A stretch of 35,220 nt of DNA from Thermoleophilia bacterium (GTDB taxonomy: Bacteria; Actinomycetota; Thermoleophilia; Solirubrobacterales; 70-9): assembly GCA_016650125.1 (NCBI GenBank), contig JAENWT010000025.1, positions 1 through 35,220 of the forward strand, read 5' to 3'. Every line of letters begins with the position of its first letter. Position 1 is the first letter of the stretch. Below are positions 1-1,814 of the stretch, in pieces. Both the position numbers and the translations under genes were made by a program. A model generated the notes under the pieces. That model made no database searches. It worked only from the letters and a program-made list of their open reading frames with translations, and was not told the DNA's origin.

Positions 1-368
1 AACCGACCCAGTTCCGGATTTGGCTTCCTGCCTGGGTCTCGGGTACTTCGGGCCTCTCGATTCACGAAGTGACCGGATTAAGGGCCGCTATGTGGCCTCG
101 ATTCAGGTCACTTCCATCTCTGCGGGCTTTCGGTGCTCGGCCCTTGGCGACATCGCACGGTCAGGTCGCGGTACCTCGGGCTCAGGTGTGGTTCGGGTAC
201 CCCTGTCCAGGTGCCTCGCTGTTGGATCAACCTCGGCGCCGCGCGAACGATTTCTCGTCCCGTCGACTAACCGCATCCTGGACAGGGGTACCCGGACCGC
301 GCCCACGGCACGTCGCTATCCCGGGATCCTGGACAGGGACACCCGCGCCGCGTCCCACGGCAGACCGA
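1..368. other. non-coding region at the left edge, with repeats
   Basis: I see no convincing gene in this stretch; the open frames that cross it have no family resemblance and no ribosome binding site. It holds a nested inverted repeat at 66-114 (GAAGTGACC at 66-74 against GGTCACTTC at 106-114, with GGCC/GGCC inside). It also holds the 18-bp repeat family listed separately at 194-350. It lies just downstream of the minus-strand transglycosylase-like gene, so some of these hairpins may end that transcript, although no T-run follows any of them. Confidence 0.6.
194..350. repeat. 18-bp repeat family, two inverted copies plus one degenerate direct copy
   Basis: CGGGTACCCCTGTCCAGG at 194-211 is the exact reverse complement of 277-294, with 65 nt between them. 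A third copy at 329-346 matches the 277-294 copy with two changes (GGGACACCC for GGGGTACCC). The second and third copies also share downstream sequence: roughly 36 bp are alike from 275 and from 327, with one indel. The arrangement resembles REP/REPIN-type intergenic repeats. I do not recognise a named family, and no coding sequence is associated with it. Confidence 0.7.
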
Positions 369-1352
369 CTACCCACAAACCCACGGAGCTGTGCCCGAGT
401 CCGCGTAGATCAAGGCCGCGATCCGGTCCTGCTCTGCCTTCGAAGCTTCGTTAGGCAAGCCCGTACCTCCGTACGCTTCCCATGTCGCGGGCATGATCTG
501 GTAGGCGCCGCCGGCTCCGCTGGGGTTCAGTGCGGAGTAGTTGCCGCCTGATTCGCACATCACGATGTAGGTCGGGATCGAGTACGGGCCGCCGAGCTGC
601 GAATCGACCTCTTCCGCGGCCTCGGCCGCGGTCGCGGCCTGTTGCTTCTCGATCTGCTTCTCCCAGCCGTTGATGTCCGACTTGAGTCCGGCAATCTCGC
701 CTTCGCGTGAACTGTTGACCGAGGCCAGTTCGGCCGCGCTCGACTCCGCGGCGGCACGTGCGGCCTCGATGCCGGCCTGGGCCGCGGCCAGCTCGGCGTT
801 GTGCCGGTCGACCCTCACCTTGAGCAGGGTCAGCCGGTCCGTCTTGTCTTCGAAGTCGTTACGCACCGAGCGCACCCGGGTGGCGAGACGCACGTCGGCG
901 TTCTGGACGGCCTCGAGGTACTCCTGTCCGGTGGCGAGGTCGCTGAAGTCCGCGGCGCCCAGCACCATGTCGGTCAGGTCGGGTGAACCGGTCATGTAGA
1001 TCGCGACCAGCCGCTCGGACAGCAACCGCTCGGCGCGCTTCAACCGTTGGCGCGAGCGATCGAGCTCGGCCTGGGAACCGGCGACCTTCTCTTCAAGCGT
1101 TGCCGACTTCTCAGCGCCGGTGGCGATCAGGCCGTTCATCTCGTCGGCCCTGGCCGCCGCGGCGGCGGCCTGCTCCTGGGCGGAATCCAGTTCCGCCCGG
1201 CCTTCACCCAGCGATTGCGAGACCTGCTCGATGCGCTGCTTCGCCGCTGCCGTATCGGATTCGAGATCGTCGACGTCGCCCTGCGCTGAAGCCGAAAAGG
1301 CCGCACAAAGCAGCGCGGGCACGATCGTGCCCGCAAGGATTGAACGCCTCAT
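369..1352 (-). CDS. secreted coiled-coil protein with a C-terminal Rpf/transglycosylase-like domain
   Basis: A 327-residue protein predicted to be exported and to act on peptidoglycan. Residues 1-24 look like a signal peptide (MRRS, hydrophobic core, ASA cleavage site). Residues about 28-245 are Ala/Glu/Arg-rich coiled coil of the kind found in RipA/PcsB-type cell-wall hydrolase partners. The last 75 residues match the transglycosylase-like (resuscitation-promoting factor) fold: CESGGNY with E267 as the probable catalytic glutamate, GAYQIMPATW, and Cys266/Cys326 positioned for a disulfide. I chose ATG at 1352; a TTG at 1358 adds two residues. Neither start has a good Shine-Dalgarno sequence. 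The gene has about 290 bp of non-coding DNA upstream and appears to be a single transcription unit. Cleavage of murein is inferred from the family and is not visible in the sequence. Confidence 0.85.
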   Translation of the reverse strand: MRRSILAGTIVPALLCAAFSASAQGDVDDLESDTAAAKQRIEQVSQSLGEGRAELDSAQEQAAAAAARADEMNGLIATGAEKSATLEEKVAGSQAELDRSRQRLKRAERLLSERLVAIYMTGSPDLTDMVLGAADFSDLATGQEYLEAVQNADVRLATRVRSVRNDFEDKTDRLTLLKVRVDRHNAELAAAQAGIEAARAAAESSAAELASVNSSREGEIAGLKSDINGWEKQIEKQQAATAAEAAEEVDSQLGGPYSIPTYIVMCESGGNYSALNPSGAGGAYQIMPATWEAYGGTGLPNEASKAEQDRIAALIYADSGTAPWVCG

Positions 1353-1382
1353 CTTCAAACCGAACCGATGAGTACTTTGAAT

Positions 1383-1412
1383 GTGTGAGTTGAAGCCAAA
1401 ACCGACTCACAC
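1383..1412. promoter_or_regulatory. 8-bp inverted repeat upstream of the transglycosylase-like gene
   Basis: GTGTGAGT at 1383-1390 is the exact reverse complement of ACTCACAC at 1405-1412, separated by 14 nt. It lies 31-60 bp upstream of the chosen start. It could be a repressor operator or a hairpin in the 5' leader. The half-sites contain TGTGA/TCACA, but they are too far apart for a standard CRP/FNR-type site. Confidence 0.35.
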
Positions 1413-1489
1413 CGTAACCAAGCCTCTCGCCCGGCCCCCCGACTCAGGGGTCCCAAGCAAGATCTCGTGCAAAAGCAGGTTTCGCCAGA

Positions 1490-1645
1490 GCCTATCCCGG
1501 TAGGGCTGCGAAGCCAACGTGCCGATCCGTGGACGCAGGGGGCCGATTGGCGGTGAGAGCGGGCTGGTTGCCCGTTCGATCCGACACATCGGGTCCCGGC
1601 GTCCGCGGGGCGGTGCGGTGGCGAGCTCTGCCTACCGGGATAGGC
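1490..1645 (+). ncRNA. candidate structured RNA: long rod with a symmetric bubble
   Basis: The two 58-nt arms 1490-1547 and 1588-1645 pair in a single register with no gaps. There is a perfect 15-bp closing stem (GCCTATCCCGGTAGG 1490-1504 with 1631-1645), then an 8x8 unpaired bubble (1505-1512 with 1623-1630). Then come 35 positions (1513-1547 with 1588-1622) with only four mismatches. A small hairpin (1560-1564 with 1570-1574) caps the structure. Five of the pairs are G-U on the plus strand and would be A-C on the minus strand, so a plus-strand RNA is favoured. The shape (closing stem, central bubble, long apical stem, about 156 nt) resembles 6S RNA, but I find no conserved 6S sequence. I also see no clear promoter or T-run terminator, and a MITE-like DNA element is an alternative. 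Confidence 0.4.
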
Positions 1646-1646
1646 G

Positions 1647-1814
1647 CTAGCCTTCGGGGACGTCCCGGGTGGCCAGGTAGCCGGCGACACCGACCACGGT
1701 GATGCCGGCCGCGACTCCAACCCCGGCGAGCAGCGCGGTCCGCAATACGAACTTATGCCTGAAGAAACTCACGAACACCTTGATGGTGGCTCTTCCTATC
1801 AGCGAATAGAACAT
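1647..1814 (-). CDS. 55-residue membrane peptide coupled to argG
   Basis: A small protein (MFYSLIGRA...DVPEG) with an amphipathic, basic N-terminus (residues 1-25, ending FFRHKFVLR) and one clear hydrophobic helix at about residues 26-48, so probably a single-pass inner-membrane peptide. Its ATG shares one base with the argG stop codon (TGATG), which implies translational coupling and a real gene. It is the last gene of the arginine operon. I do not recognise the family. The RATIKVFVSFFRHKF segment suggests a membrane-surface or partner-binding helix, but no function can be assigned. Confidence 0.7.
   Translation of the reverse strand: MFYSLIGRATIKVFVSFFRHKFVLRTALLAGVGVAAGITVVGVAGYLATRDVPEG

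What the first reader, a model, noticed from the sequence alone, without database searches (positions are those of the whole stretch)
1490..1645. Gap-free 58-nt-arm palindrome that folds as a 6S-like rod on the plus strand
Directly seen: arms 1490-1547 and 1588-1645 pair in one register (each pair sums to 3135). There is a perfect 15-bp closing stem, a symmetric 8x8 bubble and a 35-position stem with 4 mismatches. Five G-U pairs on the plus strand would be A-C on the minus strand, as expected for a selected plus-strand RNA. Closing stem, bubble and long apical stem are the layout of 6S RNA, but I see no conserved 6S sequence, promoter or terminator. It lies between a cell-wall gene and the end of the arg operon, where all genes are on the other strand.
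Basis: partly seen in the sequence, partly recalled or inferred. Interest (0 to 1): 0.62.

Follow-up and report, generated by a model that had tools for sequence, protein, structure and literature searches.

The report
Jumping DNA carrying conserved RNA fold
The hairpin is not a 6S RNA: it is one copy of a short jumping DNA element whose inside keeps, in relatives, the same one-strand RNA-like fold behind different transposon ends, so the RNA itself may be what is preserved.

Summary
The palindrome is real (RNA fold -122.6 kcal/mol, z -9.3). It is one of several copies of a 159/160-bp mobile element. Sister copies carry 17-bp terminal inverted repeats, GAGCCTATCCCGGTAGG, and TTA/TAA target duplications. 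The same ends bound complete ISAzo38-like IS5-family transposons and a truncated IS5 transposase in this genome. Genus relatives lack the insertion, which here sits at the stop codon of a conserved small ORF after argG. So it is a MITE, not 6S; the genome's own 6S (RF00013) lies elsewhere.

In 47 of 47 family copies G-T mispairs outnumber A-C (292 to 16, strand-neutral pairing), and 40 of 43 pairs show double compensatory changes. A covariance model built without the terminal repeats finds the same one-strand core in 28 of 399 genomes of the class, behind at least six kinds of terminal repeat; no Rfam family matches. Best reading: an IS5-mobilised MITE carrying a new structured-RNA core with exchangeable ends. 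Mobility of the family is well supported, and selection on the plus-strand fold is strongly supported. What the RNA does is unknown; no transcript was tested.

The parts
1488..1647 (+). whole mobile element (MITE); plus strand is the strand whose fold is conserved
   Evidence: family alignment and ends
1488..1504 (+). left terminal inverted repeat GAGCCTATCCCGGTAGG
   Evidence: shared with ISAzo38-like IS5 elements
1631..1647 (-). right terminal inverted repeat (outer edge mutated, GCGCC for GAGCC)
1505..1630 (+). structured-RNA-like core (models R1 and R3)
1528..1536 (+). conserved motif CGUGGAUGC with bulged A (here CGTGGACGC)
   Evidence: window sequence
1598..1607 (+). partner side of that motif, GGCG(T)CCGCG
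1559..1577 (+). apical hairpin with conserved CYGGU loop (CTGGT at 1564-1568)
1647..1814 (-). conserved 55-codon small ORF after argG; the element is inserted at its stop codon
1814..3088 (-). argG (upstream neighbour on the other strand)
   Evidence: translation; orthologues
369..1358 (-). Rpf/transglycosylase-like cell-wall gene (downstream neighbour)
   Evidence: Pfam PF06737

Best explanation
The element at 1488-1647 is a non-autonomous IS5-family transposon copy (a MITE). A DDE transposase of the ISAzo38-like IS5 type, encoded elsewhere, recognises the 17-bp ends, moves the element in trans and inserts it into TNA-type sites with a 3-bp duplication; in this GC-rich genome such sites often lie at stop codons. 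Shown by sequence: copies, matching transposon ends, target duplications in sister copies, empty sites in relatives. Between the ends lies a core of about 125 nt that is conserved as a structure on one strand only, and the same core occurs with several unrelated end sequences (shown). Inferred: the core works as a folded RNA, made when the element is transcribed, with the bulged-A/U-G motif and the CYGGU loop as contact sites, and it rides on whichever IS5-type transposase is available. My guess at its role is a protein- or RNA-binding module that benefits the element or tames its insertion (about 0.35); no function is shown.
For: Own-genome copies at 81-95% identity plus a 79-bp short form. 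TTA/TAA duplications in 5 of the first 6 copies read, and in many others. Truncated IS5 transposase (NF033580, 110.3 bits) beside the end GAGCCTATCTCGGTAGG with TAA outside. Complete ISAzo38-like elements in Aromatoleum, Azotobacter and Methylobacterium with the same kind of ends and TNA duplications, and a 940-bp element with such ends in another genome of the class. Empty sites at the orthologous locus in genus relatives. RNA core: covariation on a MAFFT alignment (19 of 60 pairs, 0 of 500 shuffles) and on the wide set (score 0.704 against 0.241 shuffled and at most 0.12 slid); G-T 292 against A-C 16; a sequence-only model finds 40 of 42 loci, on the same strand; at least six end types around one core; no Rfam family.
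Against: No RNA data. No promoter is evident, and flanks of different copies are unrelated, so a full-length rod RNA needs read-through transcription. By rough gene calls the plus strand is more often antisense than sense to flanking genes (-/- 23 against +/+ 8), so it would often not be in the host mRNA. G-G mismatches exceed C-C (38 to 3), so part of the asymmetry is a G excess on that strand. The window copy has lost its target duplication and changed the conserved U of the motif to C. The core was not found in the autonomous IS5 elements tested, so how it joins new ends is unexplained. The wide alignment is fitted to the model.
Confidence: 0.8

Rival explanations
1. An ordinary MITE whose interior has no RNA function; the G-T excess comes from a G/T-rich strand inherited from the founder and spread by transposition, and the paired changes come from DNA-level correction between the two arms.
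For: G-G exceeds C-C mismatches as well as G-T exceeding A-C; mobility is clear; palindromes can be kept by arm-to-arm correction.
Against: Arm correction would not favour G-T over A-C; the excess is 18 to 1 and present in 47 of 47 copies; unpaired positions are among the most conserved; the core persists with different ends and in copies with decayed ends; Massilia elements with the same ends lack the G-T excess.
Confidence: 0.13
2. The conserved strand acts as single-stranded DNA, not RNA: a hairpin formed during replication or transposition and read by a protein.
For: G-T pairs are also tolerated better than A-C in DNA hairpins; no promoter was found; transcription into the element often yields the other strand by rough gene calls.
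Against: Ends and duplications are those of a DDE element moving as double-stranded DNA; copies occur in both orientations.
Confidence: 0.12
3. The fold serves host genes in cis as a 3'-end hairpin (stabiliser or bidirectional terminator) at the stop codons where it inserts.
For: Many copies abut 3' ends of genes, and convergent gene pairs (16) exceed divergent ones (5).
Against: Co-directional neighbours are mostly antisense to the conserved strand (23 against 8); TNA target choice alone explains stop-codon insertion; no T-tract terminator.
Confidence: 0.1
4. A 6S-like RNA gene acting on RNA polymerase.
For: Rod with closing stem and bubble.
Against: No Rfam match; real 6S elsewhere in the genome; multi-copy mobile element.
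Confidence: 0.02

Closest known systems
Bacterial MITEs with structured transcripts (Correia/NEMIS, ERIC, RUP; review PMC2229807)
   Same: About 100-200 bp, terminal inverted repeats, target duplications, no transposase gene, long stem-loop transcripts; RUP is likewise tied to an IS through shared ends
   Different: Here the internal fold is strand-specific, covarying and shared between families of bacteria under different terminal repeats; target is TNA rather than TA
ISAzo38-like IS5-family insertion sequences
   Same: Same kind of 17-bp ends (GARCCTATCCCGGTAGG) and 3-bp TNA duplications; last bases of the element resemble the transposon's right end
   Different: No transposase gene; core not found in the autonomous copies tested
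6S RNA (RF00013)
   Same: Rod-like fold with closing stem and internal bubble
   Different: No model match; genuine 6S is elsewhere; this is a mobile repeat
Transposon-linked structured RNAs (omega RNA of IS200/IS605 elements, bridge RNA of IS110; general knowledge, not tested)
   Same: A conserved RNA fold carried inside a mobile element
   Different: No linked gene; carried by a DDE-type, gene-less element with exchangeable ends; no guide segment identified

Membership tests
MITE (non-autonomous IS5-family element) | terminal inverted repeats shared with an autonomous IS | tested here: met
MITE (non-autonomous IS5-family element) | target-site duplication | tested here: met
   TTA/TAA in sister copies; not recognisable in the window copy itself
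MITE (non-autonomous IS5-family element) | short, several copies, no transposase gene | tested here: met
MITE (non-autonomous IS5-family element) | empty site in relatives | tested here: met
MITE (non-autonomous IS5-family element) | transposition by the IS5 transposase in trans | not testable with these tools
   needs a mobility assay
6S RNA (RF00013) | match to the Rfam covariance model | tested here: not met
   true 6S at G000:C9
6S RNA (RF00013) | its own conserved locus with a promoter, not a repeat | tested here: not met
   multi-copy, absent at the locus in relatives, no promoter-like site
6S RNA (RF00013) | binds RNA polymerase and templates product RNA | not testable with these tools
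   needs biochemistry
Structured RNA family (new) | covarying base pairs beyond shuffled and slid controls | tested here: met
Structured RNA family (new) | strand specificity | tested here: met
Structured RNA family (new) | transcript observed | not testable with these tools
   no expression data at hand

The most novel reading that the evidence does not exclude
The unit under selection is the RNA: a new structured-RNA family, spread across a class of actinobacteria, that rides on many different IS5-type transposases by swapping terminal repeats, and sometimes stays behind as a fixed RNA after its ends decay.
Probability: 0.45. Interest if true: 0.82.

Novelty: new variant of a known kind. Interest (0 to 1): 0.62.

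Why it matters
Gene-less MITEs are usually seen as inert leftovers of insertion sequences. A core that keeps one strand's fold, with conserved unpaired contacts, while its transposon ends change would mean that RNA can be the cargo that DNA transposons propagate. The covariance model and the list of copies make the question directly testable.

Tried and rejected
6S membership was rejected. Weak Rfam matches to plant microRNA precursors are far below their gathering scores and reflect a long hairpin. Origin as a simple internal deletion of the IS fits only the ends: the right end resembles the transposase 3' end, but the core is not in the autonomous elements tested. Elements with the same ends in Massilia, Byssovorax, Patulibacter and MAG SZAS-14 are also 150-171-bp rods but did not match the wide core model significantly (best within an element E 0.9), so I do not count them as members; Massilia copies share a bulged A beside an invariant U-G pair and show no G-T excess. 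No plasmid or viral copy of the core was found. No paper naming ISAzo38 was found. The orientation bias against genes is left as tentative because gene calls were mechanical.

Full report
OBSERVATION. Window 1480-1655 folds at -122.6 kcal/mol on the plus strand (z -9.30) and -102.8 on the minus strand (z -7.13). The 15-bp closing stem and the G-U asymmetry are correct.

IT IS A MOBILE ELEMENT. A search of the own genome found the sequence at four full-length places (the other three at 81-95% identity) and as a short form at a fifth. Read in register, the element runs from 1488 to 1647 with 17-bp ends GAGCCTATCCCGGTAGG. Sister copies are flanked by TTA or TAA direct repeats, among them L002, L003, L004, L005 and L016. 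Short forms of 79 and 63 bp and many 159/160-bp copies occur in four other genomes of the genus. The window copy itself shows no duplication (CCA against TAG) and has a mutated outer edge, so it is probably an older copy.

PARENT. In the own genome a truncated transposase at C16:52642-53088 (PF01609; NF033580 'IS5 family transposase', 110.3 bits against a cut-off of 110) runs into the end GAGCCTATCTCGGTAGG with TAA outside. Related complete elements on plasmids of Aromatoleum (ISAzo38), Azotobacter and Methylobacterium have ends of the same kind and 3-bp duplications TAA, TTA and TCA. A 940-bp element with such ends and a TAA duplication lies in another genome of the class (L179). The MITE's last 30 bases resemble the transposon's right end.

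EMPTY SITE. In genus relatives argG is followed by a small ORF of about 55 codons and then by the Rpf-like gene, with no insertion. In the window the element sits at the small ORF's stop codon.

NOT 6S. No Rfam family reaches its gathering score at the locus, a permissive scan gives only chance hits, and the genome's own 6S gene is at C9:101691-101846 with 63.7 bits.

THE PLUS-STRAND FOLD. Pairs were defined by aligning each element to its own reverse complement, which treats G-T and A-C alike. The 11 long genus copies then have 62 G-T against 6 A-C helix cells; by position it is 25 against 6 (p 0.0009; positions are not fully independent). Massilia elements with the same ends do not show this, so the method does not create it. 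On the MAFFT alignment A1, 19 of 60 pairs have changes on both sides, and 0 of 500 shuffles reach the score.

A CORE WITH EXCHANGEABLE ENDS. A covariance model built from the core without the terminal repeats (R1) was run over 399 genomes of the class: 28 have matches at E <= 0.001, in four families, often several per genome. Many of the copies inspected have other ends, for example GAAGGTGTCTCAGAACC with a TTA duplication (L237), GAAGGTCTTTCAAAATGAGA with TAA (L252), GGGTCCGTGCAAGAACAA with TAA (L267), GATGCTTGATCGGGAATT at CTAG (L254), GGAGTCTGTTGATCTTTC at CTAG (L243), and GATGGTTGATTCCACG types (L242, L266). A sequence-only model finds 40 of 42 of these loci, each on the same strand as R1, so the matches are not just any hairpin; the loci were preselected by R1, which inflates this somewhat. 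In the wide alignment A4, 93.1% of cells pair, 40 of 43 pairs have double changes, and the covariation score is 0.704 against 0.241 in shuffles and at most 0.12 in slid versions. One of its 48 rows is a reverse-strand match of L003; it was left out of the next count. All 47 elements have more G-T than A-C (292 to 16). The most conserved positions include unpaired ones: GGA before UGC, and GG of the CYGGU loop. Two copies (L260 beside parA, and L263) keep a well-paired core although their ends are close to random similarity to the usual repeat, which hints that the core can be kept without mobility.

LIMITS. No expression data were available. G excess on the plus strand explains part of the asymmetry. 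Flanking genes, called mechanically, are -/- in 23, +/- in 16, +/+ in 8 and -/+ in 5 cases relative to the conserved strand; if true, the fold is more often antisense than sense to neighbours, which argues against a simple 3'-UTR role. How the core is joined to new ends is unknown, and whether the other end types belong to IS5-family transposons was not tested.

Noticed in passing
window 1647-1814 (-): A conserved, easily missed 55-aa membrane-like small ORF (MFYSLIGR...TRDVPEG) overlaps the argG stop codon and is present after argG in genus relatives; no Pfam or NCBIfam match.
   Followed up: partly
window about 1370-1475 (-): The region upstream of the Rpf-like gene holds blocks conserved in genus relatives (GATCTTGC, TACGGTG, TTTTGGCTTCAACTC), perhaps its promoter or leader; no Rfam match.
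   Followed up: no
window 184-303 (-): An inverted repeat (27-nt arms 185-211/277-303) gives a weak match to the wide core model (24 bits, E 0.024); a decayed relative or chance.
   Followed up: no
L121-L124, L126, L130-L133 (Massilia), L134 (Byssovorax): 150-171-bp rods with the same IS5-type ends but purine-rich internal loops (A-G far above C-T); Massilia copies have a bulged A beside an invariant U-G pair like the window family, yet no significant model match.
   Followed up: partly
G000:C9:101691-101846 (L113): A genuine 6S RNA gene above the Rfam cut-off, a useful control in this lineage.
   Followed up: yes
G025 (L174, L217-L224): A genome of the same family has 23 exact copies of the 14-bp end sequence, mostly without a partner end in the loci read; unexplained.
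   Followed up: no
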